Under the pieces are notes generated by a model. It saw nothing but the letters and a program-made list of their open reading frames with translations. It was not told the origin of the DNA and made no database searches. A stretch of 64,000 nt of DNA. Origin: Lachnospiraceae bacterium (lineage in GTDB: Bacteria > Bacillota > Clostridia > Lachnospirales > Lachnospiraceae). Location: assembly GCA_900168235.1 (NCBI GenBank), contig FUZG01000007.1, forward strand, positions 62,001-126,000, written 5' to 3'. How positions within the stretch are numbered: position 1 is the stretch's first letter; each line of letters starts with the position of its first letter. Of the stretch, positions 30,440 to 52,663 are shown piece after piece. The translations under genes were made by a program, and so were the position numbers.

Positions 30440-31213
30440 ATGAAAGTCGTTATTCTCGCGGGCGGTCTCGGAACAAGAATTTCCGAAGAGAGCCATTTAA
30501 AACCGAAGCCAATGATCGAGATCGGAGATAAGCCGATCCTCTGGCACATAATGAAAGAATATTCTCATTATGGATTTAATGAGTTTGTTATCTGTCTTGG
30601 ATATAAACAGCATATGGTAAAAGAGTTCTTCGCTGATTATTATCTGTATTCGTCAGATGTTACATTTGACCTTGCGGAAAACTCCATGGAAGTACACAAT
30701 CACTATGCAGAGCCCTGGAAAGTGACTCTCGTTGATACAGGTCTCCATACCATGACAGGCGGACGAGTTCGCCGTATCCGTGATTATATCGGTGACGAGA
30801 CATTTATGCTCACCTATGGTGACGGAGTTTCTGATGTAAATATCGCAGAACTTCTTAAGTTCCATAAGCAGCATGGACGTGTCGGAACCATCACAGCTAT
30901 TTCCGTAGATCAGAGATTTGGAGTCCTGGATCTCGGACACAGCGGTCAGGTTCATGAGTTTGCGGAAAAAGAGGAAAAGGATGCCGGAGTCGTAAACGGC
31001 GGATACATGGTATTTGAGCCTGCGGTATTTGACCTTATCGAGGGCGATGATACGGTATTTGAAAAAGGACCTCTTCCGAAGCTTGCAGAGGAAGGACAGC
31101 TCATGGCATACCGTCATGACGGCTTCTGGAAGTGCATGGATACCCAGCGCGAAAAGGAACAGCTTGAAAAACTCTGGGCTTCAGGTCATGCTCCGTGGAA
31201 GACCTGGGATTGA
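30440..31213 (+). CDS. rfbF: Glucose-1-phosphate cytidylyltransferase
   Basis: 257 residues from the ATG at 30440, chosen because GAAAGGGA (30427-30434) precedes it and the protein begins at the conserved MKVVILAGGLGTRISEESHLKPKPMIEIG. An upstream in-frame start at 30407 adds only unrelated residues. Other RfbF landmarks: LWHIMKEYSHYGFNEFVICLGYK, LVDTGLHTMTGGRVRRI, TYGDGVSDV and HDGFWKCMDTQREK. Converts CTP and glucose-1-phosphate to CDP-glucose, the first step to 3,6-dideoxyhexoses. Followed after 6 bp by rfbG. Confidence 0.96.
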   Translation: MKVVILAGGLGTRISEESHLKPKPMIEIGDKPILWHIMKEYSHYGFNEFVICLGYKQHMVKEFFADYYLYSSDVTFDLAENSMEVHNHYAEPWKVTLVDTGLHTMTGGRVRRIRDYIGDETFMLTYGDGVSDVNIAELLKFHKQHGRVGTITAISVDQRFGVLDLGHSGQVHEFAEKEEKDAGVVNGGYMVFEPAVFDLIEGDDTVFEKGPLPKLAEEGQLMAYRHDGFWKCMDTQREKEQLEKLWASGHAPWKTWD

Positions 31214-31219
31214 GGTAAT

Positions 31220-32302
31220 ATGTTAGATCTTTCTTTTTATAAAAATAAAAAAGTGCTGATAACCGGTCACACAGGATTTAAGGGAAGCTGGCTCACAAAG
31301 CTCATGCTGATGGCAGGAGCCGGAGTCACAGGCTACTCTCTTGAAGCACCTACAGAACCGTCGCTTTTCGATATGCTTTTTGATGAAGGCGAATTTCGTT
31401 CTGAGATCGGTGACATTCGTGATTATGAGCACTTAAACCGCGTATTTGATGAGGAACAGCCGGAGATAGTTTTCCATCTCGCGGCTCAGCCCATCGTCAG
31501 AACATCATATAAAGAACCCCGTTATACCTATGAAACGAACGTCATGGGTACGGTAAATCTCCTGGAATGTGTGAGAAATCACGCATCAGTGAGGTCGGTT
31601 CTCAATGTCACAACCGATAAGGTTTATCTTAACAGGGATGATGACACTGCATTTAAGGAGGATATGCCTCTCGACGGTTATGATCCCTATTCAAATTCAA
31701 AGTCCTGCTCGGAGCTTGTGACACACAGTTATGTGAAGTCATTTTTCTCAGAAAAGGACAGCCCAGCAATATCAACGGCAAGAGCCGGAAATGTTATCGG
31801 CGGCGGTGATTTTGCGGTAGATCGTCTGATTCCTGACTGTGTCCGCGCGGCAGAGGCAGGAACTCCGATAATCATCAGAAATCCGCAGGCTACCAGACCT
31901 TTCCAGCATGTACTGGAGCCTCTTGCGGTCTATATGGAGATCGCACAGAAGCAGTACGAGGATAAGGAAAAGTACGCAGATTACTATAATGTGGGACCGG
32001 AACTCAGCGATGTAAAGAGCGCCGGAGAGCTTGCAGATCTTTTCTGCAAAGCATACGGCGACGGACTCGTATGGGAGAATCACAGTGACGGAGGCCCTCA
32101 TGAGGCATCTTTCCTGAAGCTTGACTGCACAAAGATAAAGGATAAGATAGGCTGGCATCCGGTATGGCGCGTCGGCGAAGCTGTGCGCAAGACTGCAAAG
32201 TGGAGCCACGTATATCTGTCAGGCGGTGACGTAAAGGCAGAGACAGAGAAAGAAATAAAGGAATACCTTCAGGACATGGAAGAATCGGTTTTCCGTGTGT
32301 GA
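31220..32302 (+). CDS. rfbG: CDP-glucose 4,6-dehydratase
   Basis: 360 residues, the family's usual length. SDR motifs: VLITGHTGFKGSWLTKLM (NAD-binding glycine loop), FHLAAQPIVRTSY, NVTTDKVY and GYDPYSNSKSCSE (Tyr-xxx-Lys). NVIGGGDFAVDRLIPDCVRA and RPFQHVLEPL are typical of CDP-glucose dehydratase rather than dTDP-glucose dehydratase. Product is CDP-4-keto-6-deoxyglucose. GAGG at 31212-31215, spanning the previous stop, serves as ribosome site. Confidence 0.96.
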   Translation: MLDLSFYKNKKVLITGHTGFKGSWLTKLMLMAGAGVTGYSLEAPTEPSLFDMLFDEGEFRSEIGDIRDYEHLNRVFDEEQPEIVFHLAAQPIVRTSYKEPRYTYETNVMGTVNLLECVRNHASVRSVLNVTTDKVYLNRDDDTAFKEDMPLDGYDPYSNSKSCSELVTHSYVKSFFSEKDSPAISTARAGNVIGGGDFAVDRLIPDCVRAAEAGTPIIIRNPQATRPFQHVLEPLAVYMEIAQKQYEDKEKYADYYNVGPELSDVKSAGELADLFCKAYGDGLVWENHSDGGPHEASFLKLDCTKIKDKIGWHPVWRVGEAVRKTAKWSHVYLSGGDVKAETEKEIKEYLQDMEESVFRV

Positions 32303-32324
32303 TGTTTTGGTAAAGAGGAATACA

Positions 32325-33674
32325 ATGGATTTTAATAATATGACTGAAAAAGAGGCACGTCAGCAGATCCTTGATGCTGTTGCCGATTATGCAAAGAAGT
32401 ACCACTGCGAAAAGAAGCCCTACGAAGAAGGACAGAGGATTCCCTATGCGAGCCGTGTTTATGATGAGAAGGAGATCTTGAATCTCGTTGATTCTTCTCT
32501 TGAGTTCTGGCTCACATCAGGAAGATATACTAACCGGTTTGAGAAAAAGTTTGGCGAGTATCTCGGTGTTCCCTATGTGTCTATCGTAAACTCCGGCTCC
32601 AGCGCAAATCTCCTTGCATTTATGACTCTTACCAGTCCGCTCCTCGGAGACCGCAGGATCAAGCGCGGTGATGAGATCATAACTGTAGCAGCTGGATTCC
32701 CGACAACAGTAGCACCTGCGATCCAGTACGGTGCAGTTCCTGTTTTTGTTGACGTTACTATCCCGCAGTACAATATCGATGTTACACGCCTTGAGGAAGC
32801 TTATTCCGAAAAGACAAAGGCTGTAATGATTGCTCATACTCTCGGAAATCCTTTTGACCTCGGCGTAGTAAAAGAGTTCTGTGACCGTCACGGTCTCTGG
32901 CTCGTAGAGGATAACTGTGACGCACTCGGCACTGTTTATACTATTAACGGTGAAGACAAGCTCACAGGTACTATCGGTGATATCGGAACATCAAGCTTCT
33001 ATCCTCCGCACCATATGACAATGGGCGAAGGCGGCGCAGTTTATACATCAAACCCGCTCCTTCACAAGATAATCCGTTCCATGAGAGACTGGGGAAGAGA
33101 GTGCAGCTGTCCTTCAGGAGTAGATAATTCCTGCGGACACCGTTATGACGGTCAGTACGGACTTCTTCCGAAGGGCTATGATCATAAATATGTATATTCC
33201 CACTTTGGATTCAATCTCAAGCCTACTGATATGCAGGCTGCTGTGGGATGTGCTCAGCTTGAGAAATTCCCGAACTTCGTAAAGAGAAGAAGGGAAAACT
33301 TTGAAACACTTTATAACGGACTTAAGGACCTTTCAGACAGACTGATACTTCCTGAACCCTGTGAAAATTCAAAGCCTTCATGGTTTGGTTTCCTTATCAC
33401 AGTGAAGGAAGGAAGCGGACTCAGCCGTAACGAAATGGTTCAGGAAATAGAAAGAGAAGGCGTTCAGACAAGAATGTTATTCTCAGGAAATCTTTTAAGA
33501 CATCCGTGCTTTGATGAGATGAGGGATGACACCACCGCATACCGTGTTGTGGGAGACCTTACAAACACTGACCTCATCATGCAGAATACATTCTGGATCG
33601 GTGTATATCCGGGAATGGATGAAGCACGTCTTGATCGCATGATCCGTGTTATCCGCCATGCAGCAAAGGCGTGA
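32325..33674 (+). CDS. rfbH: CDP-4-keto-6-deoxyglucose 3-dehydrase (E1), PLP/2Fe-2S
   Basis: 449 residues from the ATG at 32325 with AAGAGGAA (32312-32319); the frame opens at 32295 but that start overlaps rfbG and lacks a site. The fold is aminotransferase-like, but the PLP-lysine position carries histidine: SFYPPHHMTMGEGGAV, with His229/His230, the hallmark of E1/RfbH/AscC. Cysteines CSCPSGVDNSC fit the iron-sulphur ligand region. It removes the 3-OH to give CDP-4-keto-3,6-dideoxyglucose together with an E3-type reductase, which is not encoded in this window. No abequose, paratose, tyvelose or ascarylose synthase follows; the next genes suggest another fate for the product. Confidence 0.96.
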   Translation: MDFNNMTEKEARQQILDAVADYAKKYHCEKKPYEEGQRIPYASRVYDEKEILNLVDSSLEFWLTSGRYTNRFEKKFGEYLGVPYVSIVNSGSSANLLAFMTLTSPLLGDRRIKRGDEIITVAAGFPTTVAPAIQYGAVPVFVDVTIPQYNIDVTRLEEAYSEKTKAVMIAHTLGNPFDLGVVKEFCDRHGLWLVEDNCDALGTVYTINGEDKLTGTIGDIGTSSFYPPHHMTMGEGGAVYTSNPLLHKIIRSMRDWGRECSCPSGVDNSCGHRYDGQYGLLPKGYDHKYVYSHFGFNLKPTDMQAAVGCAQLEKFPNFVKRRRENFETLYNGLKDLSDRLILPEPCENSKPSWFGFLITVKEGSGLSRNEMVQEIEREGVQTRMLFSGNLLRHPCFDEMRDDTTAYRVVGDLTNTDLIMQNTFWIGVYPGMDEARLDRMIRVIRHAAKA

Positions 33675-33697
33675 AACGGTATTAAGCAAGGAGAAAA

Positions 33698-35311
33698 ATG
33701 AGAAATATAAGATTACTTGACTGCACATTAAGAGACGGCGGTTTTGTAAATGACTGGAGATTCGGACGCGGAGACATCATAAACCTTTTCGAGCGTTCAG
33801 TTTCCGCAGGAATAGACTATATCGAGGTTGGTTTCCTCGATGAGAGAGAGCCTTTTGATCCGGACAGGACGATGACACCGGACAGCGAGGGTATTGACAG
33901 GATCTTTGCCGGTCTTGATCACAGAAATGCCCAGATCTTCGGTATGATCGATTACGGCACATGCGATCTCTCGCACATCAAGGACGCAAAGGATTCCGTG
34001 CTTGACGGTATCCGCGTCATGATAAAGAAAAAGACCAGACATGAAGCTATAGCTTTCTGTAAAGAGCTTAAGAAAAAGGGCTATCTCGTCGGAGCACAGC
34101 CTGTATCAGTTACAGGCTATACTGATGAAGAAATGGCAGAGCTTGTTGAAGAGATAAATGACCTTCATCCCATCGCCATGTATATCGTGGATACCTATGG
34201 ACTGCTGGACCGCAGAGAGCTTCTTCATATTTATGACCTTATCGACAGCCGTCTTGATCCTGACATCGCTATCGGTTATCATGCCCACAACAATTTCCAG
34301 CAGGCATTTTCCAATACGGTTGCACTTATGGAGATGGAGTCAGAGCGTGATCTAGTAATCGACGGATCTGCATACGGAATAGGAAAGTCTGCGGGAAACT
34401 GCCCGCTCGAGCTCCTTACCATGTGGATGAATGAGCACGAATATGCTCACTATCACACAAGCCAGGTGCTTGAGATGATCGACACATGCATTATGAAAAT
34501 CTATGAGAAGAATCCGTGGGGCTATCAGATGCAGTACTTCCTTTGCGCCAGCAATGACTGTCATCCGAAGTATGCCCAGTATCTTATTCAGAAAAAGACT
34601 CTTTCCGTAAAGTCCATTAATGAGATCCTCGCCATGATCACAAAGGAAGAGGCGCTGGCATTTAATCAGGAATATATCGAAAAGCTTTATCTTGAATATC
34701 AGAACAATACGATAAATGATGATTCGGATAAAACAAGACTTTCAGAGGCACTTAAGGGTAAGCGTGTACTGGTGCTCGGCCCCGGTCCGTCTGTAGTAAG
34801 TGAGAGAGAAAAGATCACAGACTACATCGCATCAGAGGCACCGGTGCTCATGGCGATCAACTTTATGCCTGAGAAATACCACCTGGATTATCTGTTCTTA
34901 AGTAATTCAAAGCGCTACATGCAGCTTTCATCAAGACTTGCGAAGCTCGCATCAGACGGCAGTTCCGATATGAAGATCGTTGCTACGTCTAATGTGACTC
35001 CGGCATCAGGAAGCTTTGATTACACTATGGATTATTCAGGTCTTGTTGACATGAAGTTCGAAATACCGGATAATTCACTTCCTATGCTTTTAAGACTCCT
35101 GTCAGAAACAGGCGCAGAGGAAGTAGTGCTCGCAGGATTTGACGGATACGTGTCCGAGTCCGGCAGAAACTATGCAGAGTCCGGCATGGAGTATGAGTTT
35201 GCAGCAGATTATGCTATGAAGCTCAATCATTACACAGGTGAAGTAGTGCGTACGCTTAAGGGCAAGGGAATGAATATCCGTTTCCTCACGACTACAAAGT
35301 ACGAGATATAA
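33698..35311 (+). CDS. HMGL/DRE-TIM aldolase fused to a MptE/DUF115-like domain
   Basis: 537 residues in two parts. Residues 1-345 form an HMGL-like (DRE-TIM) barrel: IRLLDCTLRDGGFVNDWRFG at the start, YIEVGFLDERE, VDTYGLLDRREL and the metal-binding GYHAHNNFQQA (HAHNN at 195-199). Close relatives are 4-hydroxy-2-oxovalerate aldolases, which split or join a 2-oxo acid and an aldehyde. Residues 355-537 look like a Rossmann-type domain of the MptE/DUF115 group: VLVLGPGPS (GPGPS 361-365), ... INFMPEKYHLDYLFLSN and EVVLAGFDGYV. That second domain may bind a nucleotide or sugar. It sits 23 bp after rfbH. Substrate is unknown; action on a CDP-dideoxysugar or its side chain is an inference. Confidence 0.82.
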   Translation: MRNIRLLDCTLRDGGFVNDWRFGRGDIINLFERSVSAGIDYIEVGFLDEREPFDPDRTMTPDSEGIDRIFAGLDHRNAQIFGMIDYGTCDLSHIKDAKDSVLDGIRVMIKKKTRHEAIAFCKELKKKGYLVGAQPVSVTGYTDEEMAELVEEINDLHPIAMYIVDTYGLLDRRELLHIYDLIDSRLDPDIAIGYHAHNNFQQAFSNTVALMEMESERDLVIDGSAYGIGKSAGNCPLELLTMWMNEHEYAHYHTSQVLEMIDTCIMKIYEKNPWGYQMQYFLCASNDCHPKYAQYLIQKKTLSVKSINEILAMITKEEALAFNQEYIEKLYLEYQNNTINDDSDKTRLSEALKGKRVLVLGPGPSVVSEREKITDYIASEAPVLMAINFMPEKYHLDYLFLSNSKRYMQLSSRLAKLASDGSSDMKIVATSNVTPASGSFDYTMDYSGLVDMKFEIPDNSLPMLLRLLSETGAEEVVLAGFDGYVSESGRNYAESGMEYEFAADYAMKLNHYTGEVVRTLKGKGMNIRFLTTTKYEI

Positions 35312-35341
35312 AGATACGTTTTCAAAGAAAGACAAGGATTT

Positions 35342-36004
35342 ATGGCATCATTAAAATATAAGGCAGCATTATGGGATATGGATGGTACACTTTTTTTTAC
35401 AAAAAGGGGTATCGTAAAGGCAGTAGATGATGCTTCAAAAGAAGCCGGACTTCCGATGGTGGACCGTGACAAGGTTGATATGTTCATTGGTCCGCCGATC
35501 CAGTTCGGTTTTAAGGATTATTATGGTCTGAGGCTTGAGGACGCAAAGCTCGTAGCTGATCTCTTCCGTAAGTCTTACCGTGAAAAAGGCTATGTTCTTG
35601 AGTGTGATCCCTATGAGGGTGTTATCGAATCCTTAAAAACACTGAAGGAAGCAGGCGTAAAGCTTGCGGTCGCAACACTTAAAAAGCAGGATATGGCAGA
35701 GCGCATCTGTGAGAAGTTCGGACTTGATACTGTATTTGACTGCATATACGGTTCTGATGCTCAGGATAACCTGAAAAAATGCGATATCATCGATCTCTGC
35801 TGTAAAGAACTTGGTGTTGATAAATCAGAAGCGGTAATGATAGGTGATACTGTTTTTGACGCAGAGGGAGCTGAAAAGGCTGGAAGTCCGTTCCTTGCGG
35901 TGACTTACGGATTTGGATTCCACAGCCCGGAGGACCTCGATGGTCATGAGACAGTCGGTATCGCAGAAACAGCATCAGATATCGCGGGATTTTTTATAGA
36001 TTAA
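35342..36004 (+). CDS. HAD-family phosphatase, phosphoglycolate-phosphatase-like
   Basis: 220 residues. HAD motif I ALWDMDGTLFF (Asp12 nucleophile, Asp14), motif II near LAVATLKKQDMAERI, Lys in KKCDIIDLC, and motif IV MIGDTVFDAEGAEKAG. The cap domain placement (after motif I) is that of HAD subfamily IA. It should dephosphorylate a small substrate. It lies 30 bp after the aldolase fusion and may belong to the same sugar or precursor route; the substrate cannot be read. Confidence 0.9.
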   Translation: MASLKYKAALWDMDGTLFFTKRGIVKAVDDASKEAGLPMVDRDKVDMFIGPPIQFGFKDYYGLRLEDAKLVADLFRKSYREKGYVLECDPYEGVIESLKTLKEAGVKLAVATLKKQDMAERICEKFGLDTVFDCIYGSDAQDNLKKCDIIDLCCKELGVDKSEAVMIGDTVFDAEGAEKAGSPFLAVTYGFGFHSPEDLDGHETVGIAETASDIAGFFID

Positions 36005-36031
36005 TGATTCACAGGTTTTTTAACCGGGGGA

Positions 36032-38827
36032 ATGATGAATAATTGTATCAGTAAAGCAAAAAACATACTGGAAAGCTTTCGCGCAAAAAAATGTGCATAT
36101 TTTATCAGCTATACCGTACTCTTTGCAGTGTCCGCACTGCTGGTGTACGGGTATTTTGTGTTATACGGAAAGACTATGATCTGGGAAGGAGACGGCATAA
36201 AACAGCACTATAATGCCGTTCTCTATATCAGCAGATATCTTAAACAGGTTGTGCATACTCTTATGTCGGAGCACAAGCTGGTCCTTCCCATGTGGGATTA
36301 TTTCACAGGATATGGCGCGGATATCCTCACAACATATCATTACTATGGTATGGGTGATCCTTTCATGCTGTTTTCGGCGCTGGTTCCCGAAAACCTCATG
36401 GAGGAATTTTATGCTCTGCTTTTCTTTGAAAGGCTTTTTATCGGCGGATTAGGTTTTTCCTTATTCTCATTTATGCATGGAAATAAGCGGAGTTCCACAC
36501 TTATCGGTGCCATGATGTATTGCTTTTCAGCATATCCCATGGTCCTTGCGACGATGCATTCCGGCTTTCTTATCCCGGTAGCGTATTTTCCGTGGATACT
36601 GTACGGAGCGGAAAAGATCTTTAGAAAGAAGAGCCCTGTACCGTTTATCCTTGCTATAGGAATATCAGGATTAAGTAATTTCTATTTCTTTTACATGCAG
36701 GCTCTGCTCCTGGTGCTCTACTGCGTATTCAGATATCTCCGCATATACAAGGGTATCCGTATAAAAGAGCTGGTGCCGGTGCTTACAAAATTTATCGTAA
36801 TGAGTATGATCGGCGTGCTGTTTACGCTTCCGATTATCATACCTGCAGCCGGCGTGATGCTTTCAGCAGGAAGAGTCAGCACAAAAAAAGCGGTCCCGAT
36901 ACTTTATGATTTCAGCTATTATGTACGTTTTTTTGCATACTTTATGAACACCCAGAGACCGGGTTCATGGACTCTTATGGGTTACACAGCAGTCGGACTT
37001 TTTTGTGTTATCGTTCTGTTTTTACATAAGGAAAAGGAGTGGACCGGTTACAGGATCGCATTTATCATCTCCACACTGATAGCACTCATACCTGCATGTG
37101 GTTTTGCCCTGACAGGTTTTTCATACGTCGTAAACCGATGGATGTGGGCTTACGGTGCTGTAGTAGGAATGATAACAGCAGCGGTCATTTCCAGACTTCA
37201 TGAAGTGACAAAGGACGAGAAAAAGCGAATTTCAGCAGTTGCTATGATACTTATGCTGATATCGGTTTTCTTTGCACAGTTAAGAAGCGAAGAGACCATG
37301 TTTTCCTATGCATGCCTCTTATCACTTGTGATGCTCTTTATGCTGTTTTCAATGATCTTTGAAAATGCCCTCCAGCGTTTTACTGTGATGACGGTATTTT
37401 TCCTTTTGGGAGCAGGCGCAAATGGAATGTACAGATATTCCATTACAGAAGGCGACATGACGGAAAACTTTATCGACAGAAACGCCGCAAACAGACTGCT
37501 TACCACGGATAATGCGGACCAGCTCCTTGATGAGATCGATGATCAGGGTGTTTACCGCATAGATGAGTCTGCGCTTCAGATTGTACAAAATTCTGCCATC
37601 GAGAGAAAAAAGCGCGCGAACGCGTACTATTTCTCGCTGATAAACGGAGTAGAGGTGGACTATACTGCAAAGCTGTTCTTCAATGTAACAGAAGAGTGGA
37701 ATTATAACGGAGTAGGAAGCAGGAGTGCGCTTGAGCTCCTTACAGGTGTGAAGTACTATCTCTCCGAAGAGGGAAATGAAGGCATGATCCCGGTGCAGTT
37801 CACAGAAAAAGCTGCTGAGGGAGATACGCCTGTAGGACATGTGTCTGTATGGAAAGATCCCAATGCACTTCCGCTCGGATACACCTATGACAGCTATGTG
37901 CCCGATGATAAGTTCAGTGAAATGAGCATATCTGAGCGTACATCAGCGCTGCTCACCGGTGCGGTAATGGATGACAGCAGTTTTCCGGAAGCGACTGTTC
38001 AGGATAAATCCCGTTCTATCCTGAAAAGCATAGAGACAAAGGGAAATGCCCAGGTCACAGACCATTCATTTGTGATCGGTCAGGGAGGATCCCTTGTAAT
38101 AAAGCTTGATCAGGTGGAAGACTCCGAGGTTCATGTGGTATTCAACAAGCTGAAATACAGGAGCATGAAGGAAAGAGATTCCTATACTGAAGCCGGATGG
38201 GCAGCTCTTACAGAGTATGAAAAGCAGAATGTTTACCGCAAGGATACATTTGCGTCAGAGGTTCTGGACAGCTCTATCATGATCGATGACGGAACTGATA
38301 AGAATTTTGTAGGAGTGCTCACAGCAAGAGCATCTACTTATAGCGGAAGACATAATTTCCTCTGTAACCTTGGATACGATGAGAAGACTCCTGAGGAGAT
38401 AACTCTGTCTTTCCGCAATATGGGTACTTACAGCTTTGATTCCTTTGACGTGATCGCTGAACCTATGTCAGAAGTACGAGAGGCAGAAAAGAAGCTGGGT
38501 GAAGAAGTTCTTACAAATGTCATTGAGGATACAGATCATATATCCGGTGATATCACAGTCGGTACGGATAAGATCCTTGTGATATCAATGCCTTATAAAG
38601 ACGGATGGAGAGCATGGGTCGATGGAGAAGAAGTAAAGGTCCATCGTGCAAATGTATTAATGATGGGGCTTGAATTAAAGGAAGGCTCGCATCATATTGA
38701 GCTTCGCTATGCTCAGCCTTTTGCTGAAACAGGAATAGCATGTTTTGCAGCCGCTGTCATATTAACGATGGCAGTATCAGGTTTTTATCTTGTAAGGCGT
38801 AAAAAGAACGTTGAAACAGCAGAGTAA
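36032..38827 (+). CDS. YfhO-family GT-C membrane protein (second of three)
   Basis: 931 residues; GGGGG at 36026-36030 precedes ATG 36032 and ATG 36035, and either could be used. N-terminal membrane half with the first loop KTMIWEGDGIKQHYNAVLYISRYLKQ and MWDYFTGYGADILTTYHYYGMGDPF, the Asp-Gly-Ile-Lys-Gln-His cluster being conserved with the neighbouring copy. Large outside domain, then the tail VISMPYKDGWRAWVDGEEVKVHRANVLMMGLELKEG and one last helix before RRKKN. Probably transfers a sugar from polyprenyl phosphate to an outside polymer. It is adjacent to a related gene of equal size, so the pair looks like an old tandem duplication. Confidence 0.9.
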   Translation: MMNNCISKAKNILESFRAKKCAYFISYTVLFAVSALLVYGYFVLYGKTMIWEGDGIKQHYNAVLYISRYLKQVVHTLMSEHKLVLPMWDYFTGYGADILTTYHYYGMGDPFMLFSALVPENLMEEFYALLFFERLFIGGLGFSLFSFMHGNKRSSTLIGAMMYCFSAYPMVLATMHSGFLIPVAYFPWILYGAEKIFRKKSPVPFILAIGISGLSNFYFFYMQALLLVLYCVFRYLRIYKGIRIKELVPVLTKFIVMSMIGVLFTLPIIIPAAGVMLSAGRVSTKKAVPILYDFSYYVRFFAYFMNTQRPGSWTLMGYTAVGLFCVIVLFLHKEKEWTGYRIAFIISTLIALIPACGFALTGFSYVVNRWMWAYGAVVGMITAAVISRLHEVTKDEKKRISAVAMILMLISVFFAQLRSEETMFSYACLLSLVMLFMLFSMIFENALQRFTVMTVFFLLGAGANGMYRYSITEGDMTENFIDRNAANRLLTTDNADQLLDEIDDQGVYRIDESALQIVQNSAIERKKRANAYYFSLINGVEVDYTAKLFFNVTEEWNYNGVGSRSALELLTGVKYYLSEEGNEGMIPVQFTEKAAEGDTPVGHVSVWKDPNALPLGYTYDSYVPDDKFSEMSISERTSALLTGAVMDDSSFPEATVQDKSRSILKSIETKGNAQVTDHSFVIGQGGSLVIKLDQVEDSEVHVVFNKLKYRSMKERDSYTEAGWAALTEYEKQNVYRKDTFASEVLDSSIMIDDGTDKNFVGVLTARASTYSGRHNFLCNLGYDEKTPEEITLSFRNMGTYSFDSFDVIAEPMSEVREAEKKLGEEVLTNVIEDTDHISGDITVGTDKILVISMPYKDGWRAWVDGEEVKVHRANVLMMGLELKEGSHHIELRYAQPFAETGIACFAAAVILTMAVSGFYLVRRKKNVETAE

Positions 38828-38840
38828 AGAGGATTAACGG

Positions 38841-41633
38841 ATGAAAGACGTCCTTTTAGCCGCAGAGAAGCGGTTCAGAGAAAAGAAATATTCATTTTGG
38901 ATGTTGTACAGTGCAGCATTTACAGGTATGTTCCTGCTGTGTTTTTCATGGTTTTTTATTGCCCATAAGACATTCGTATGGAAATTTGATGCAATAGAAC
39001 AGCACTATATGGGAATGTTGTATTGCAGCCGGTTATTTAAGGCTATAATAAAAAATCTGATGTCAGGGGCAGGATTTGTCATCCCGATGTGGGACATGTC
39101 CATAGGATTCGGTTCAGATGTATTTACTGCCATGAATTACTATGGACTTGGTGATCCTTTTACGATCCTTACAGTGGTCGTTCCCGAACATCATATGGAT
39201 AAGTTCTACATTGTCCTGTTTTTCATAAAGCTGTACACCGCAGGATGGGGCTTTACCATTTTTTCAAGGAGACATAAGGCAGGAAGGCTGGAATCTGTTG
39301 CAGGAGCTTTACTCTACTGCTTTTCCATGTGGGCTCTTTTCATCTGCCTTCACCAGTACTGCTTTTTACTGCCCCTTTTATGGTTTCCGTATATCCTGAA
39401 CGGTGTGGATAATGTTCTTGAACAGAAAAATCCTCTGCCGTTTATCCTTCCGCTTACAGCTGCAGCCATCAGTAATTTTTATTTTCTTTACATGATGGTG
39501 GTACTGGCGGTAGGCTACGCGGTATTCCGCTATGTGACAGAGTTCAGACCTATAATTTTTAAGGATGCGGCAAGTACCGTACTGAGGTTTTTGGTATATG
39601 GTGCGGCATCCATGATGAGTGCGTCCATCATTCTTTATCCTGCGGTCAGGGTAATGATGACATCATCGAGATATGGTGCAGACAGGATAGTATCTGTATT
39701 TTATCCGCTCAAATTTTATCTGGAGCTGCTGCCGTCATTTGCAGGAGACTTTATCCCGTCATCATATACACTGCTTGGTTATACACCTATCGGTTTAATA
39801 GCAGTTGTGCTGATGTTTACGCTTAAGGGACAGTACCGCAGATTAAAAATAGTGTTCTGCGCACTTACGCTCTGTCTGGTGATCCCGTTCTTTGGTTTTG
39901 CGTTAAATGGATTTGCATATGCAACAAACAGGTGGGGCTGGTGCTACACACTGCTTATAAGTTATATTGTTGCAAGGATGATCCCGCACTTTACTGAGCT
40001 TTCACTTAGTCAGAAAAAAGTGATAGCAGTGTCAGCGTGCGTTTTTGTCTTAAATACCGCGCTTACGAAGTTTACCAGGACAAAGGGCGGAGTTTCTCTC
40101 TGCGTGCTGTATGCATCGATAGTCCTGATCCTCTTAATGACTTCTGAAATGAAAAAGAGGATGATAAACTATGTTGTTATCGCATGTCTTCTCGCGGGTA
40201 TTTTCGTGAATGCTTATAACGAGTATTCTGAATACGGAGACAATGCAGGCGTAGCGCCGTTCTTGTATTTCCACGAATCAAATGAGCGTCTCACCGCTTA
40301 TGGTGCGGACTCTCTTACTGAAGATGATGATTCGGCGTACAGGATAGAGGAGATCGGGACAGATTTTACCAGAAACAGTTCGGATATCCGCGGAAAAATG
40401 ACCACAAACTACTATCTTAGTATGACGGAAAAGTACGTTCCTGAGTTTATACTGAAAAGCGGTCTTAATGCTGAAAGAACTTACATGTACCAGAATCTTG
40501 GAGACCGCAGTATCCTTCAGAAACTGCTTGGTATAAAGTATCTGTATGTGAAGGATGGAAGCGAAGACCGTGTGCCGGCAGATTTCCGCGATACAGGAAA
40601 AACAGTTGATGCAAACGGAGAAACAGTGCATCTTTATGAAGCGGATAATGCTCTGGGTCTTGGGTTTATGCTCCCTTCGTATATCACAAGGTCTGAATGG
40701 GAAGAAATGTCGCTTTCTGAAAGACAGACGGCGCTGTTAAATGCCGTAGTCATCGAAGATAAGGATTCGGATGCGGTAACTGTACCCCATGCAGATGCTG
40801 AGAAAGTATCAGCAGGCGCTGTATCAGTCATGCAGGATATTGAGGGCAGCAGTGCTGTAGAAATAAAAGAAGATAAAATTTTTGTAAAAAAATCCGGGGC
40901 ATCTATTAAAATAAAAATAAATCCCGCAAAAAACAGTGAACTATATGTTATCTTTAAGGGATTAGATTTTCAAAATAAATCTAAGAGAGAAGAGTACAGG
41001 GAAAGCGAATGGAATAATCTTTCTTTCTATGAAAGGGCAGCAGTCCGGGATGAAGATTTTCTCTCAGATGAAGATGATACAGTAAATATCGGCGCTTCTG
41101 TGGGCGACGATATGGAACACTACCGTTCCATCAATTTCATGAATCACAGAAATATTTATTACTGCGGTCAGGAGGATTTCCTGCTGAGTCTCGGTGATTT
41201 TGAGGACACGGGAGATACAGTGCGGATTCATTTCCAGAAAGCCGGAGTATATGATCTTTCGGATATAGATGTGGTCGCAGAGCCTGTTGACAGTATAGAA
41301 AGTGCGGCAGAAAGAGCATCTAAGGAACAGATCACTGATCTTACGATCGGAACTAACACTATAAGCGGTACCATTTCAGCAGAGAATGACGGGCTTTTGT
41401 TTTTATCCATCCCGTATAATACCGGATGGAAGGCTTTTGTTGACGGTGCGGAGACAGAGATCCATCAGTCTGATGCCGCATTTATGTCTCTTGATATCAA
41501 GGAAGGAACACATGCTGTAGAGCTTCGGTATGAGTCTCCTGATATAAGGACCGGAGCACTTCTGTCGATGGGAGGCATCCTTTTGACAGTGGTTTCCATG
41601 ATCCTCTTTATGATAAAAAAGAAAAAAGGTTAA
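38841..41633 (+). CDS. YfhO-family GT-C membrane protein (third of three)
   Basis: 930 residues, 13 bp after its paralogue. The same landmarks occur at the same places: KTFVWKFDAIEQHYMGMLYCSRLFKA, MWDMSIGFGSDVFTAMNYYGLGDPF, and the C-terminal FLSIPYNTGWKAFVDGAETEIHQSDAAFMSLDIKEG, followed by a final helix and a Lys-rich end. Identity to the second copy is moderate by eye, so they have probably separated in substrate. Same predicted role: extracytoplasmic glycosyl transfer from a polyprenyl-phosphate sugar, fed by the GtrB-like enzyme at 43481. Confidence 0.9.
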   Translation: MKDVLLAAEKRFREKKYSFWMLYSAAFTGMFLLCFSWFFIAHKTFVWKFDAIEQHYMGMLYCSRLFKAIIKNLMSGAGFVIPMWDMSIGFGSDVFTAMNYYGLGDPFTILTVVVPEHHMDKFYIVLFFIKLYTAGWGFTIFSRRHKAGRLESVAGALLYCFSMWALFICLHQYCFLLPLLWFPYILNGVDNVLEQKNPLPFILPLTAAAISNFYFLYMMVVLAVGYAVFRYVTEFRPIIFKDAASTVLRFLVYGAASMMSASIILYPAVRVMMTSSRYGADRIVSVFYPLKFYLELLPSFAGDFIPSSYTLLGYTPIGLIAVVLMFTLKGQYRRLKIVFCALTLCLVIPFFGFALNGFAYATNRWGWCYTLLISYIVARMIPHFTELSLSQKKVIAVSACVFVLNTALTKFTRTKGGVSLCVLYASIVLILLMTSEMKKRMINYVVIACLLAGIFVNAYNEYSEYGDNAGVAPFLYFHESNERLTAYGADSLTEDDDSAYRIEEIGTDFTRNSSDIRGKMTTNYYLSMTEKYVPEFILKSGLNAERTYMYQNLGDRSILQKLLGIKYLYVKDGSEDRVPADFRDTGKTVDANGETVHLYEADNALGLGFMLPSYITRSEWEEMSLSERQTALLNAVVIEDKDSDAVTVPHADAEKVSAGAVSVMQDIEGSSAVEIKEDKIFVKKSGASIKIKINPAKNSELYVIFKGLDFQNKSKREEYRESEWNNLSFYERAAVRDEDFLSDEDDTVNIGASVGDDMEHYRSINFMNHRNIYYCGQEDFLLSLGDFEDTGDTVRIHFQKAGVYDLSDIDVVAEPVDSIESAAERASKEQITDLTIGTNTISGTISAENDGLLFLSIPYNTGWKAFVDGAETEIHQSDAAFMSLDIKEGTHAVELRYESPDIRTGALLSMGGILLTVVSMILFMIKKKKG

Positions 41634-41649
41634 AAAGGAGATAACGGGT

Positions 41650-43458
41650 ATGAAGGTAAAGATCGCACAGTATATTGCCGATTTTCTTGCGTCCCATGGT
41701 GTGGATACGGTATTCACAGTAACAGGCGGAGGTGCAATGCACCTTAATGATGCATTCGGTCATCATAGTGATCTGCACTGCATCTATAATCACCATGAGC
41801 AGGGCTCTGCCATTGCAGCAGAGGGATATACGAGACTCACGGGAAAGATCGCGGCAGTATGCGTAACAAGCGGCCCCGGCGGAACAAATGCCATTACAGG
41901 CGCATTCGACTGCTGGGTTGATTCTGTTCCCATGTTCGTGATCTCCGGACAGGTTAAGCGTGAGACTACCATGTGGTCCACGGATGTTCCGCTCCGCCAG
42001 CTTGGTGATCAGGAGGGAAATATCACTGAGATGGTGAAGTCCATCACTAAGTTTGCAGTGATGATAACTAATCCGAATGAGATCAGATATCAGCTTGAAA
42101 AAGCATGGTATCTTGCAAATCACGGTAGAAAAGGACCGGTTTGGATCGATGTGCCCCTTGATATCCAGGCAGCTATCGTAGATACCGACGAGCTTTCAGG
42201 ATTTTCTCCGGAAAATACAAAGAAGAAGGAACAGCCTGTATTCAGAAAGACAGATGCAGACAAGATCCTTGAGCATATAGAAGCAGCGAGAAGACCTGTT
42301 ATCCTTGCAGGTGAAGGTATCCGCTTAGGTGATGCATATCCTGAGTTCCTCGAAGCTACACATGCATTAAGTATCCCGATCCTTACAGCATGGAATGCTC
42401 AGGACCTTTTGTGGGATGCGAACCCTTACTATGTAGGAATCCCCGGAACAGTAGGACAGAGAGGTGCGAATTTCATCGTTCAGAATGCGGATCTCCTGCT
42501 CGTCCTCGGATGCCGTATGAATATCCGTATCATAAGCTACAACCGCCATCAGTTCGCGAAGGATGCTTACAAGATCCAGGTGGATATCGATGAGAACGAG
42601 CTTCATAAGCCTACAGTAAATATCGACATGCCTATCCATGCTGACGTAAAGGAAGTTCTTGCAGAGCTTGCGCATGCTTCAACAGACGAGGTTGGAGATC
42701 ATCAGGAGTGGCTTAAGTGGTGCAGAAATATTTATAAAAAGTATTCTGCAAATCTGCCTGAGTACAGCAAGGTTCCGAAGCCCATGAACCCGTACCCGTT
42801 CCTTAAGGAGCTTTCCGATCACATGAAGGAAAATGATGTGGTGATCTGTGGTAACGGTGCAGCATGTGTTCAGACATTCCAGGCGTTTGAAGTGAGAAAG
42901 GGCGTTCGTATCTTTACAAATTCAGGTTCTGCAGCAATGGGATTCGGTTTCCCGGCAGCTCTCGGAGCATCCGTTGCCCGCGGTAAAAAGAGGACTATCT
43001 GCATAGATGGTGACGGAAGCTTCATGATGAATATCCAGGAGCTTCAGACAGCGGTATATAACAACCTGAACTTAAAGATATTTATCCTTAATAACAACGG
43101 ATACCATTCCATCCGTCAGACCCAGAAGAACCTCTTCAAGGGCCGTGAGCTCATCGGTATCAGCGACGGAAATGGTGTGAGCTTCCCTTCATTCAAGAAG
43201 ATAGCGTCAGCATTTGGTGTAACATATGTAAAAATCGATTCACTGAATGATGCATCTAAAAAGATAGACGAAGTGCTTGAGAGCACAGGTCCTGTTATCT
43301 GCGAGGCATTTGTTGATCCGGATCAGAACTTTGAACCGAAGCTTTCATCCAAGGTAAATCCTGACGGAACTATCGTTTCACCGCCTCTTGATGACATGTT
43401 CCCGTTCCTTCCGGAAGAAGAGTATAAGAGGATCCGCAAGGAAGCACAGAGCATTTGA
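41650..43458 (+). CDS. Thiamine-diphosphate enzyme, acetolactate-synthase-like (YerE-type candidate)
   Basis: 602 residues with the three TPP-enzyme domains. Catalytic Glu50 lies in YNHHEQGSAIAAEGYTR; FVISGQVKRET follows; the TPP-binding motif is GDGSFMMNIQELQTA with NNNGYHS about 27 residues later (from residue 454). YerE of Yersinia is a member of this family that adds a two-carbon unit from pyruvate to C4 of CDP-4-keto-3,6-dideoxyglucose, making yersiniose. RfbF, RfbG and RfbH supply that substrate in this same block, so a YerE-like carbon-branching role is the leading inference. No acetolactate synthase small subunit is nearby, which speaks against amino-acid synthesis. No YerF-like reductase is seen. 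Confidence 0.85.
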   Translation: MKVKIAQYIADFLASHGVDTVFTVTGGGAMHLNDAFGHHSDLHCIYNHHEQGSAIAAEGYTRLTGKIAAVCVTSGPGGTNAITGAFDCWVDSVPMFVISGQVKRETTMWSTDVPLRQLGDQEGNITEMVKSITKFAVMITNPNEIRYQLEKAWYLANHGRKGPVWIDVPLDIQAAIVDTDELSGFSPENTKKKEQPVFRKTDADKILEHIEAARRPVILAGEGIRLGDAYPEFLEATHALSIPILTAWNAQDLLWDANPYYVGIPGTVGQRGANFIVQNADLLLVLGCRMNIRIISYNRHQFAKDAYKIQVDIDENELHKPTVNIDMPIHADVKEVLAELAHASTDEVGDHQEWLKWCRNIYKKYSANLPEYSKVPKPMNPYPFLKELSDHMKENDVVICGNGAACVQTFQAFEVRKGVRIFTNSGSAAMGFGFPAALGASVARGKKRTICIDGDGSFMMNIQELQTAVYNNLNLKIFILNNNGYHSIRQTQKNLFKGRELIGISDGNGVSFPSFKKIASAFGVTYVKIDSLNDASKKIDEVLESTGPVICEAFVDPDQNFEPKLSSKVNPDGTIVSPPLDDMFPFLPEEEYKRIRKEAQSI

Positions 43459-43480: not shown

Positions 43481-44488
43481 ATGAAAGACACAAATAAGAG
43501 AAAAAAGATCAGCATCATGATCCCGTGTTACAACGAGATCGAAAATGTAGGCCCCATGAGTGAGGCCGTGACAAAGATCATGACAGAGCAGCTTTCAAAG
43601 TATGATTGGGAGCTGCTGTTCATCGATAACTGTTCTGAGGATGGAACCAGAGAAAAGCTTGAGGAGATCTGTGAAGGAAATCCTCATGTGCGCGCTATCC
43701 TTAATGTTACAAATTTTGGACAGTTCAACTCTCCTTTTTACGGCATGTGCCAGACAACAGGAGACGCGACTATCTCAATGGCATGTGACTTCCAGGATCC
43801 GCCGGAACTCATTCCTGAATTTGTAAAGTGGTGGGAAGAGGGCTACAAGATCGTAAGCGCCATAAAGACCACCAGTAAGGAAAATAAGCTGATCTACTTC
43901 CTTCGTACCTGCTATTACAAGATGATCAGAAATATGTCCACAGTAAAGCTCATCGAGAACTTTACCGGAACAGGTCTCTATGATAAGTCCTTTATAAACC
44001 TTCTCCGTCAGCTGGACGATCCGATCCCGTTCCTCAGAGGTATCGTGGCTGAGTACAATTTCAAGAGAAAGGAGATACCTTTCGACCAGCCGAAGCGCCG
44101 TGCGGGAAAGACCAGCAATAATTTTTACCTGCTTTATGATGCAGCGATGCTTTCCATCACATCATATACAAAGGTTGGTCTCCGTCTTGCTACATTTGCA
44201 GGATTTATCGCTTCTGCCGTAAGTTTTCTCGTGGCAGTGGTATACCTTGTGATGAAGCTTACCCACTGGCATGAATTTTCAGCAGGATATGCACCAATGG
44301 TCATTGGTGTGTTCCTCTTAGGTTCGCTTCAGTTATTTTTCATAGGCTTTATGGGAGAATACATCCTTAATATCAATACCCGTATCATGAACCGGCCGCT
44401 GGTCGTTGAGGAGCGGAGGCTGAACTTCGACAAGGATACATCATCTGAGGCAGAAGAAAAGGAAGGATCAGCTGAGCATGAAGCTTGA
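43481..44488 (+). CDS. GtrB/DPM1-like polyprenyl-phosphate glycosyltransferase
   Basis: 335 residues. N-terminal GT2 domain (KISIMIPCYNEIENVGPMSEAV, WELLFIDNCSEDGT, MACDFQDPPELIPEF), then two C-terminal membrane helices (GLRLATFAGFIASAVSFLVAVVYLV and PMVIGVFLLGSLQLFFIGFMGEYIL). This is the GtrB/CsbB/ArnC architecture: sugar is moved from a nucleotide donor to undecaprenyl phosphate at the inner face of the membrane. The three YfhO proteins and the ArnT-like protein nearby are natural users. The 3' end overlaps the GT8 gene by 11 bp. Confidence 0.93.
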   Translation: MKDTNKRKKISIMIPCYNEIENVGPMSEAVTKIMTEQLSKYDWELLFIDNCSEDGTREKLEEICEGNPHVRAILNVTNFGQFNSPFYGMCQTTGDATISMACDFQDPPELIPEFVKWWEEGYKIVSAIKTTSKENKLIYFLRTCYYKMIRNMSTVKLIENFTGTGLYDKSFINLLRQLDDPIPFLRGIVAEYNFKRKEIPFDQPKRRAGKTSNNFYLLYDAAMLSITSYTKVGLRLATFAGFIASAVSFLVAVVYLVMKLTHWHEFSAGYAPMVIGVFLLGSLQLFFIGFMGEYILNINTRIMNRPLVVEERRLNFDKDTSSEAEEKEGSAEHEA

Positions 44489-51589: not shown

Positions 51590-52597
51590 ATGGATTTTAA
51601 TAAAAGAAAGATAATAGCTGAGCTTGGAATGACTCATGACGGAAGTCTCGGACAGGCAAAAGCGATGATAATAGCAGCAGCGGAATGTGGTGTGGACGCA
51701 GTAAAGCTTCAGACACACATTTCCGAGGCAGAGACCATTCATAATGCTCCCCAGCCGCCTTATTTCACGGCAGAGCCCAGATATGAGTATTTTAAGCGTA
51801 CAGCTTTCAATATGGATCAGTGGAAAGAGCTGAAGGAATGTGCGAAGGAAAATAATGTTGAATTTATTTCTTCTCCGTTTTCTATCGAGGCGATAGATTT
51901 TCTGCTGGAGCTGGGCATTGACTGCTTCAAGGTACCGAGCGGTGAGATCACAAATATCCCGTACCTTGAGCATCTTGCAGACGCAGGCGTTCCGGTCATC
52001 GTTTCCAGCGGAATGAGCAGTCTGGAAGAGCTTGATGAGTGTATGCAGATCTTTTTAAGAAAGAACTGTAACGTGTCTCTTATGCAGTGTACATCCGAGT
52101 ATCCCTGTGATCCGAAGCACGTAGGATTAAATATAATCGACCTCTTTAAGGAAAAGTATCCGGGGGTTCCTCTTGGATTTTCGGATCATTCATCAGGAGA
52201 GTGGGCAGCTATCGCAGCTTTCCAGAAGGGTGCGCATCTTATCGAGAAGCACTTCACACTCAGCAAAAAAATGTACGGTCCTGATGCGAAAATGTCTATG
52301 GAGCCTGCTGAGATGACGCAGCTCACTGATTCTATAAAGAATCTTGAGATCGCTCTTGCAAATCCTGTAGATAAGTCAAGTGCTGATGAATTTTCCAACA
52401 TGAAGGAGATCTTCCAGAAGAGTATCGTATCCATTACGGATATTCCTGCGGGAACTCCCATTACAGAGGATATGCTGGGATATAAAAAGCCGGGAACAGG
52501 ACTTCCTACAAAGTACTATAAGGAAATCCTTGGTCATACGGCTAAGAGAGACCTGCACTTTGATGACATTATAAATAAAGAGGACATTAACTGGTAA
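51590..52597 (+). CDS. neuB: NeuB-family nonulosonic acid synthase (second copy, altered metal site)
   Basis: 335 residues. TIM barrel with KIIAELGMTHDGSLGQAKAM, AVKLQTHISEAETI, FKVPSGEITNIPYLE, QCTSEYPCDP, GFSDHSSGEWAAIAA and LIEKHFTLSKKM; then a short SAF domain (IPAGTPITEDMLGYKKPGTGLP). One residue is odd: the second metal-ligand His of N. meningitidis NeuB (GPDH) is Ala here (GPDAK, Ala233), while His221 remains. With neuC and neuA following, sialic acid synthesis (ManNAc + PEP) is the simple reading. The substitution could mean a different substrate. Only about 45% of positions look alike with the copy at 12362 by eye. Confidence 0.88.
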   Translation: MDFNKRKIIAELGMTHDGSLGQAKAMIIAAAECGVDAVKLQTHISEAETIHNAPQPPYFTAEPRYEYFKRTAFNMDQWKELKECAKENNVEFISSPFSIEAIDFLLELGIDCFKVPSGEITNIPYLEHLADAGVPVIVSSGMSSLEELDECMQIFLRKNCNVSLMQCTSEYPCDPKHVGLNIIDLFKEKYPGVPLGFSDHSSGEWAAIAAFQKGAHLIEKHFTLSKKMYGPDAKMSMEPAEMTQLTDSIKNLEIALANPVDKSSADEFSNMKEIFQKSIVSITDIPAGTPITEDMLGYKKPGTGLPTKYYKEILGHTAKRDLHFDDIINKEDINW

Positions 52598-52663
52598 AAG
52601 CTGTTGCTGAAACGTGCATAAAGCCGTAAAACAGTGAACCCGTGTCAAATAGAAGGGAATATT

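What the first reader, a model, noticed from the sequence alone, without database searches (positions are those of the whole stretch)
30440..43458. CDP-dideoxysugar, TPP enzyme and aldolase-fusion cassette: candidate pathway to an undescribed branched-chain sugar
Seen: rfbF, rfbG and rfbH are followed by a DRE-TIM aldolase fused to a DUF115-like domain, a HAD phosphatase and, after two YfhO genes, an acetolactate-synthase-like enzyme with catalytic Glu50 and the GDGS TPP motif. Known: Yersinia YerE, of the same TPP family, adds a two-carbon branch to CDP-4-keto-3,6-dideoxyglucose. Inference: this locus makes a C4-branched 3,6-dideoxyhexose. The aldolase would supply or extend the branch (pyruvate/acetaldehyde chemistry), so the product could differ from yersiniose. 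Neither a YerF reductase nor any abequose/paratose-type synthase is present.
Basis: partly seen in the sequence, partly recalled or inferred. Interest (0 to 1): 0.8.

Follow-up and report, generated by a model that had tools for sequence, protein, structure and literature searches.

The report
Aldolase-fed cassette for long-branched sugars
A gut-type bacterium carries a gene set that probably first builds a small sugar-acid with an aldolase and then grafts it, through a vitamin-B1 enzyme, onto a modified glucose, giving an unusual long-branched surface sugar; the sugar itself has not been seen.

Summary
In detail: rfbF, rfbG, rfbH, a DRE-TIM aldolase with an extra C-terminal domain, a HAD phosphatase, two YfhO genes and a ThDP enzyme lie in one run (30440-43458). 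The ThDP enzyme is not an acetolactate synthase: its closest solved relative is JanthE, a YerE-like enzyme, and the four ALS references fall across a 99-100 branch. The genes co-occur: 61 of the 80 best aldolase loci from named genomes have the ThDP gene on the same strand. The main new point is the aldolase's role. Its relatives have two alternative partners never seen together: the ThDP enzyme (78 of 124 loci) or a KdsB/PseF-like cytidylyltransferase (34; both 0; neither 12). In the second setting it often lies between that gene and a phosphatase, where KdsA would be expected. In some other ThDP loci a HpcH/HpaI- or NeuB-type aldolase is found instead. So the aldolase most likely makes a 4-hydroxy-2-oxo acid that the ThDP enzyme uses as donor, as reported for ErwE, giving a long C4 branch with a 2'-deoxy carbon like caryophyllose. 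The aldehyde, and so the product, is unknown. New variant of a known kind.

The parts
30440..31213 (+). rfbF, glucose-1-phosphate cytidylyltransferase
   Evidence: TIGR02623 401.9 bits, cut-off 300.25
31220..32302 (+). rfbG, CDP-glucose 4,6-dehydratase
   Evidence: TIGR02622 429.2 bits, cut-off 278.45
32325..33674 (+). rfbH, 3-dehydrase giving CDP-4-keto-3,6-dideoxyglucose
   Evidence: NF011936 717.2 bits, cut-off 423; PPHH in place of the usual PLP-lysine stretch seen in the sequence (meaning recalled)
33698..34717 (+). DRE-TIM aldolase part of the fusion (about residues 1-340)
   Evidence: PF00682; AlphaFold model pLDDT 92, Foldseek best 3dxi E 8.6e-16, then 4-hydroxy-2-oxovalerate aldolases
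34718..35311 (+). C-terminal MptE/SteA/GT42-like Rossmann domain of the fusion, role unknown
35342..36004 (+). HAD phosphatase (phosphoglycolate-phosphatase-like)
   Evidence: PF13419; HAD genes accompany 51 of 88 ThDP genes with aldolase and 2 of 28 without
36032..38827 (+). YfhO membrane protein, probable GT-C glycosyltransferase
   Evidence: PF09586 E 1.3e-86
38841..41633 (+). YfhO membrane protein, probable GT-C glycosyltransferase
   Evidence: PF09586 E 2.7e-94
41650..43458 (+). JanthE/YerE-like ThDP carboligase
   Evidence: 8rph E 2e-117; trees; E50 and GDGS
43481..44488 (+). GT2 of the PgfS/GtrB kind, probable loader of the sugar onto undecaprenyl phosphate
   Evidence: PF00535; NF047588 PgfS 171.6 bits, below its cut-off 500
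27579..30314 (+). upstream YfhO gene, possibly part of the same transfer machinery
   Evidence: PF09586 E 2.2e-75; a YfhO gene upstream of rfbF also in L081 and L084

Best explanation
The cassette makes a 3,6-dideoxyhexose with a long branch at C4. RfbF, RfbG and RfbH make CDP-4-keto-3,6-dideoxyglucose (family assignment, strong). The aldolase adds pyruvate to a small, probably phosphorylated aldehyde, giving a 4-hydroxy-2-oxo acid, that is a 3-deoxy-2-ulosonic acid; the HAD enzyme removes the phosphate (both inferred from partners). The ThDP enzyme decarboxylates that acid and adds its acyl carbanion to C4 of the CDP-sugar (inferred; reported for ErwE on a sugar analogue). The result is a 4-C-(1-oxo-2-deoxy-polyhydroxyalkyl) branch. 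The next GT2 probably loads the sugar on undecaprenyl phosphate and the YfhO proteins pass it to a surface polymer (inferred from the Gram-positive multi-component systems). The aldehyde, the branch length and any final reduction are not known.
For: ThDP enzyme is JanthE-like: 396 bits vs 263 for the best ALS; the four ALS references lie across a 99-100 branch. Partner test: of 124 aldolase loci (window and duplicates left out) 78 have the ThDP gene, 34 a cytidylyltransferase, 0 both, 12 neither; with at least 4 kb on both sides 61/27/0/9 of 97; fewest switches on the aldolase tree 5. In the second setting the neighbour is KdsB-like (19 loci; one example 308 vs cut-off 193 bits) or PseF/KdsB-like (15 loci; example below cut-off), often followed by a PGP- (11) or KdsC-type (9) phosphatase, and a NeuB query found none in 35. 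In the ThDP-first set a HpcH/HpaI (3) or NeuB (8) gene lies within 6 kb, abutting in L194 and L196. In the window's 64-row ThDP clade 62 have an aldolase; the other 2 lie at contig ends. HAD 51 of 88 with aldolase, 2 of 28 without. ErwE prefers 4-hydroxy-2-oxo acids (PMC12247030). Caryophyllose has a 1,3,4,5-tetrahydroxyhexyl branch, so its 2' carbon is deoxy (PMC5706390, passages), as expected of a pyruvate aldol.
Against: No chemistry is shown. The aldolase scores far below the 4-hydroxy-2-oxovalerate aldolase cut-off (69 vs 286 bits) and, by motif, has Phe16 where DmpG has its catalytic His21 (recalled). 28 of 41 ThDP genes in the ThDP-first set have no aldolase of the three kinds within 6 kb, so the ThDP family as a whole does not need one. 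One of the two aldolase-less members of the window's clade (L169) shows 2.9 kb upstream without an aldolase; only its downstream side is missing. HAD is missing from 37 of 88 ThDP genes with aldolase. Six of the eight NeuB genes are 0.8-3.8 kb away and might serve another sugar. An RfbI-type electron donor for RfbH was not seen in the window; own-genome Fer2 hits lie elsewhere.
Confidence: 0.66

Rival explanations
1. Yersiniose-type pathway: the ThDP enzyme uses plain pyruvate and adds a two-carbon acetyl branch; the aldolase and HAD make another sugar of the same polymer.
For: YerE uses pyruvate (PMC12247030). The sister ThDP clade is mostly without aldolase (19 of 31) and may well be of this kind.
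Against: In the window's own ThDP clade 62 of 64 have an aldolase and the other 2 lie at contig ends; in 124 loci the aldolase never occurs together with the cytidylyltransferase that would activate a separate ulosonic acid; the two ThDP clades differ at residues 103, 104 and 117, near position 120, which aligns with the JanthE active-site residue V121.
Confidence: 0.18
2. The aldolase acts after the ThDP enzyme and lengthens the acetyl branch on the CDP-sugar, perhaps with the sugar held by the C-terminal MptE/GT42-like domain.
For: The C-terminal domain resembles CMP-binding proteins at fold level, and both main settings involve cytidine nucleotides.
Against: Relatives in cytidylyltransferase operons have no ThDP gene nearby and so no such branch to extend; known relatives act on aldehydes (recalled), and the acetyl branch is a ketone; non-homologous aldolases occur in similar places.
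Confidence: 0.08
3. The ThDP enzyme is a divergent acetolactate synthase unrelated to the sugar.
For: Best NCBIfam profile is TIGR00118 at 374.4 bits.
Against: That score is below the cut-off of 538.35; phylogeny; the genome has two other ThDP genes that fall with ALS; recurrent rfb neighbours.
Confidence: 0.03

Closest known systems
JanthE (Janthinobacterium; taken to be PDB 8rph because of its CDG motif)
   Same: closest solved ThDP enzyme, shared C-terminal tail; equivalents of Y297 and K567 present in the window and in 93 and 110 of 115 relatives
   Different: GDG instead of CDG, Asp120 for Val121, Val268 for Tyr268, Arg293 for Pro293; gene neighbourhood of JanthE not checked
ErwE / erwiniose (Pectobacterium)
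   Same: YerE-like enzyme reported to use 4-hydroxy-2-oxo acids as donor with CDP-4-keto-3,6-dideoxyglucose as sugar (PMC12247030)
   Different: sequence and gene cluster not available here; none of the three 'aldolase' places in that review concerns a gene cluster
Caryophyllose pathway (MMAR_2332, M. marinum)
   Same: 3,6-dideoxyhexose with a 4-C polyhydroxyhexyl branch whose 2' carbon is deoxy (PMC5706390, passages)
   Different: product structure known there, unknown here; cluster not compared
YerE/YerF yersiniose pathway
   Same: same CDP-sugar acceptor and enzyme superfamily (PMC12247030)
   Different: two-carbon donor, reductase YerF (recalled); here an aldolase and phosphatase, no reductase in the cassette
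KdsA/KdsC/KdsB (CMP-Kdo)
   Same: the aldolase family often lies beside KdsB- or PseF-like and KdsC- or PGP-like genes in its other setting
   Different: DRE-TIM, presumably pyruvate-dependent, aldolase instead of PEP-dependent KdsA
BVU_2661 (PDB 3dxi), putative aldolase
   Same: closest solved relative of the aldolase part
   Different: only its N-terminal domain was solved, no function in the entry title

Membership tests
YerE-like ketone-accepting ThDP lyases | groups with YerE/JanthE rather than acetolactate synthases | tested here: met
   exact place of JanthE and PpYerE is unsure because of long branches
YerE-like ketone-accepting ThDP lyases | catalytic Glu and GDG ThDP motif | tested here: met
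   E50 in 115 of 115, GDGS at 454
YerE-like ketone-accepting ThDP lyases | genes for a deoxy-keto-sugar nucleotide nearby | tested here: met
   rfbF, rfbG, rfbH
YerE-like ketone-accepting ThDP lyases | carboligation to a ketone | not testable with these tools
   needs purified enzyme
CDP-3,6-dideoxyhexose pathway (RfbFGH) | RfbF, RfbG, RfbH above curated cut-offs | tested here: met
CDP-3,6-dideoxyhexose pathway (RfbFGH) | dedicated RfbI-type reductase for RfbH | tested here: inconclusive
   not among the window genes scanned; four Fer2 hits elsewhere in the genome, not examined further
4-hydroxy-2-oxovalerate aldolase (TIGR03217) | equivalog cut-off 286 bits | tested here: not met
   69 bits; it may work like one but is not filed as one
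DRE-TIM (HMGL-like) superfamily | PF00682 and conserved R-D and H-x-H metal/pyruvate site | tested here: met
   73.4 vs 29 bits; invariant residues
MptE-like (DUF115) / GT42 fold, C-terminal domain | PF01973 above cut-off | tested here: not met
   no hit in the window domain; 1 of 50 relatives at E 0.0016
MptE-like (DUF115) / GT42 fold, C-terminal domain | fold similarity | tested here: inconclusive
   Foldseek 8sd5 E 1.9e-3 TM 0.44, 1ro7 E 7.6e-3 TM 0.48, SteA E 2.7e-5 TM 0.48

The most novel reading that the evidence does not exclude
The fused aldolase is a third kind of synthase feeding ulosonic-acid pathways, pyruvate-dependent and unrelated to KdsA and NeuB, whose product is exchanged between two sugar pathways: activated whole as a CMP-ulosonate, or decarboxylated by a JanthE-type enzyme and grafted on a CDP-dideoxyhexose. 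Its C-terminal MptE/GT42-like domain binds the cytidine nucleotide common to both pathways and docks or gates the aldolase.
Probability: 0.35. Interest if true: 0.78.

Novelty: new variant of a known kind. Interest (0 to 1): 0.62.

Why it matters
Long-branched sugars are known from a few structures, and a recent review says that for the vast majority of YerE-like genes no product structure is known (PMC12247030). The partner-swap pattern gives a testable rule: ThDP plus aldolase predicts a long branch with a 2'-deoxy carbon, ThDP without aldolase a short one. It also points to a possible new route to ulosonic acids (the cytidylyltransferase type was seen in Bacillota, Bacteroidales, a Fusobacterium and Gastranaerophilales-type cyanobacteria), and to a two-enzyme C-C bond-forming pair of use in biocatalysis.

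Tried and rejected
Acetolactate synthase reading: rejected by score and trees. Reductase inside the window: the SDR genes at 54546 and 26078 look like WbpP/TviC and YmfI; those at 856 and 1893 score only 32 and 23 bits with the reductase profile and were not pursued. The best own-genome match to that reductase family (f3) lies on contig C27 beside a zinc-type dehydrogenase, with none of the cassette genes among the ORFs scanned there, at 47% identity to one member. A DUF115 assignment by Pfam failed. A plasmid search for the ThDP enzyme gave nothing at E<=1e-100. I could not check the published ErwE, JanthE and MMAR_2332 gene neighbourhoods: I had no Pectobacterium or Janthinobacterium locus and could not centre a search there, and three key papers (Steitz 2022, Krug 2024, Lanza 2024) are not held. 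So I cannot say whether the aldolase link is proposed there. Library searches combining aldolase with YerE, branched sugar, CDP-glucose or ulosonic terms listed 0, 1, 1 and 10 of 17 papers; by title and abstract none of those listed is about such a cassette, and only the review was opened.

Limits of the counts: loci are related by descent, so Fisher p-values overstate certainty. The ThDP-first set left out places already known to have the fusion, and also the last 13 weak or split rows and two rows (G350, G372). In one search I entered 46 where the table gives 47. NeuB absence in the cytidylyltransferase loci was tested with a NeuB query only; KdsA was not searched for, it is only not among the families that recur there. 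KdsB, PseF and KdsC labels rest on one or two examples per cluster. Trees are of the quick LG+G4 kind with long branches for JanthE and PpYerE.
Full report
What is there. A PgfS-like GT2 follows at 43481 and a third YfhO precedes at 27579. Much of the rest of the window is glycan genes: glycosyltransferases, two NeuB genes and cytidylyltransferases near them. The window lies on contig C5 of a 3.79 Mb, 99.93% complete genome; the nearest named relative found is Lachnospiraceae bacterium NK4A144 (aldolase 87%, ThDP enzyme 96%).

The ThDP enzyme. Its best solved relative is 8rph at 396 bits, against 263 for the best acetolactate synthase and 262 for 5ahk. I take 8rph as JanthE because its sequence carries the CDG motif that PMC12247030 (parts 1 and 2 of 5, section 9 and part 1 of the reference list read) and PMC12188165 (part 1 of 3 and passages) describe, and 5ahk as PpYerE from recall. 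In a tree of 71 rows the four ALS references, two of them the genome's own, lie on one side of a 99 branch and the 65 cassette enzymes with JanthE and PpYerE on the other; the same split has 100 in a tree of 122 rows. Glu50 is invariant in 115 of 115 aligned relatives and the GDG motif is kept (D in 110, E in 5). Of the JanthE hot spots, K567 is kept in 110 of 115 and Y297 in 93 of 115; V121 is Asp in 84 of 115 and in all 61 aldolase-bearing relatives of the window's clade that were compared.

Co-occurrence. Searching 200 genomes of the family found an aldolase-fusion relative at E<=1e-60 in 46. Of these 80, 61 carry the ThDP gene on the same strand within the fetched stretch, 49 HAD, 42 rfbH, 41 rfbF, 39 rfbG and 40 the GT2; many stretches are cut by contig ends. 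Loci with the ThDP gene include Lachnospiraceae, Oscillospiraceae, Clostridium, Selenomonas, Treponema, Fibrobacter, a Bacteroidales MAG and, on the opposite strand, a Methanomassiliicoccaceae archaeon (L159); a second archaeal locus (L133) has the aldolase with rfbG and HAD but no ThDP gene in reach.

What the aldolase does. Some relatives, including a second copy in this genome (34% identical), have no ThDP gene but a cytidylyltransferase of the KdsB/NeuA family (PF02348) next to them. Counting within 6 kb on the same strand and dropping duplicates and the window, 78 of 124 loci have ThDP, 34 the cytidylyltransferase, 12 neither and none both; with 4 kb on both sides 61, 27, 9 and 0 of 97. 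On a tree of 125 aldolases the two labels need at least five changes (rows with neither left out), so partners were probably swapped repeatedly. In the cytidylyltransferase setting (35 loci, one contig counted twice) the neighbours fall in a cluster of 19, whose tested example scores as KdsB (308 vs 193 bits), and one of 15, whose tested example scores weakly as PseF/KdsB; a phosphatase often follows, PGP-like in 11 and KdsC-like in 9 of 35; a NeuB query found none. The aldolase thus seems to occupy the place of KdsA. Both settings make sense if its product is a 3-deoxy-2-ulosonic acid, that is a 4-hydroxy-2-oxo acid.

The reciprocal test. Starting from the ThDP gene in family and phylum genomes (60 of 200 and 13 of 398 genomes at E<=1e-95) I fetched 40 regions not already in hand. 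Of 41 ThDP genes there, 28 have no aldolase of the three kinds within 6 kb, 8 a NeuB gene, 3 a HpcH/HpaI gene and 2 a DRE-TIM aldolase. In L194 and L196 the NeuB gene abuts the ThDP gene; in the other six it is 0.8 to 3.8 kb away and might belong to another sugar. In the ThDP tree the window's clade of 64 holds 60 with the DRE-TIM aldolase, 2 with HpcH/HpaI and 2 with none. These two lie within 250 bases of a contig end: L170 lacks its upstream side and has a HAD gene right after the ThDP gene; L169 lacks its downstream side but shows 2.9 kb upstream without an aldolase. The sister clade of 31 holds 19 without and 12 with aldolase. With a wide HAD profile, HAD accompanies 51 of 88 ThDP genes that have an aldolase and 2 of 28 that have none; with 5 kb on both sides 36 of 66 and 1 of 20 (the narrower first count was 47 of 88 and 0 of 28). 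So aldolase and phosphatase tend to belong together, and ThDP genes without them may make a short, yersiniose-like branch.

Fit with known chemistry. ErwE is reported not to use pyruvate but 4-hydroxy-2-oxo acids, with CDP-4-keto-3,6-dideoxyglucose as the sugar and the reaction shown on an analogue (PMC12247030); JanthE also accepts 4-hydroxy-2-oxovalerate with benzaldehyde (PMC12188165). Caryophyllose is given as 3,6-dideoxy-4-C-(1,3,4,5-tetrahydroxyhexyl)hexose (PMC5706390, passages): the missing oxygen at C2' is what a pyruvate aldol donor would leave. I infer the same pattern here with an unknown aldehyde. The GT2 plus YfhO pair resembles the Gram-positive multi-component systems in which a GT-A enzyme makes a C55-P-sugar and a GT-C enzyme such as YfhO transfers it outside (PMC8035078, passages).

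Reduction step. An unbiased neighbour clustering found an extended SDR in 43 of 80 loci, 41 of the 63 with a ThDP gene on either strand, downstream of that gene in 34 of the 41. It is also common beside ThDP genes without aldolase (12 of 20 with full flanks), so it may be the counterpart of YerF. The window and its near relatives L081, L082 and L085 lack it in the stretch seen (L083 is cut inside the ThDP gene); the product may keep its keto group or be reduced by an enzyme encoded elsewhere.

The C-terminal domain. It is present in both partner settings. Its model (pLDDT 92.6, pTM 0.88) resembles SteA, archaeal HPPK/MptE and the CMP-bound sialyltransferase CstII, at modest scores; a profile search points weakly the same way (8sd5 E 0.047, 9c08 E 0.094). 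A cytidine-nucleotide-binding role is therefore possible but unproven.

Verdict. The role of the aldolase is now better defined. Long-branched 3,6-dideoxyhexoses made by YerE-like enzymes are a known kind; the fused, partner-swapping aldolase that appears to feed them was not found described in the held library, with the caveat that three of the most relevant papers could not be read.

Noticed in passing
L070:7783-11482 (own genome G000:C11): Second aldolase fusion of this genome lies between a cytidylyltransferase (PF02348) and a KdsC-type phosphatase (TIGR01670 168 vs 107 bits): a likely unusual CMP-ulosonic acid operon.
   Followed up: partly
L168:5846-10014 (Desulfobaculum bizertense plasmid NZ_CP090010.1): rfbH, a split transketolase and an unfused aldolase of the same superfamily in a row: a third possible ThDP partner.
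   Followed up: partly
L196:7576-9105, L194:7205-8746: NeuB-type synthases of about 510 aa (L196 with a C-terminal cupin domain) directly abutting a JanthE-like ThDP gene.
   Followed up: partly
L199:7487-8278, L200:10594-11526, L203:10738-11553: HpcH/HpaI-type aldolases beside the ThDP gene in three genomes of the same phylum, with no DRE-TIM fusion detected in the stretch.
   Followed up: yes
L086:6292-7215 and 42 other loci: Extended SDR family usually downstream of the ThDP gene, absent from the window's cassette; candidate reductase of the branch keto group.
   Followed up: partly
L133, L159: Cassette members in Methanomassiliicoccaceae archaea (MAGs), which may point to spread across domains.
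   Followed up: no
L091:5489-6463: PseD/Maf-like protein near the cytidylyltransferase-type aldolase locus of Robinsoniella peoriensis; possible transferase of the CMP-ulosonate.
   Followed up: no
window 12230-13435 and 51590-54522: Two NeuB genes in the window, one with NeuC and a PseF-like cytidylyltransferase: a separate nonulosonic acid is probably part of the surface glycans.
   Followed up: no
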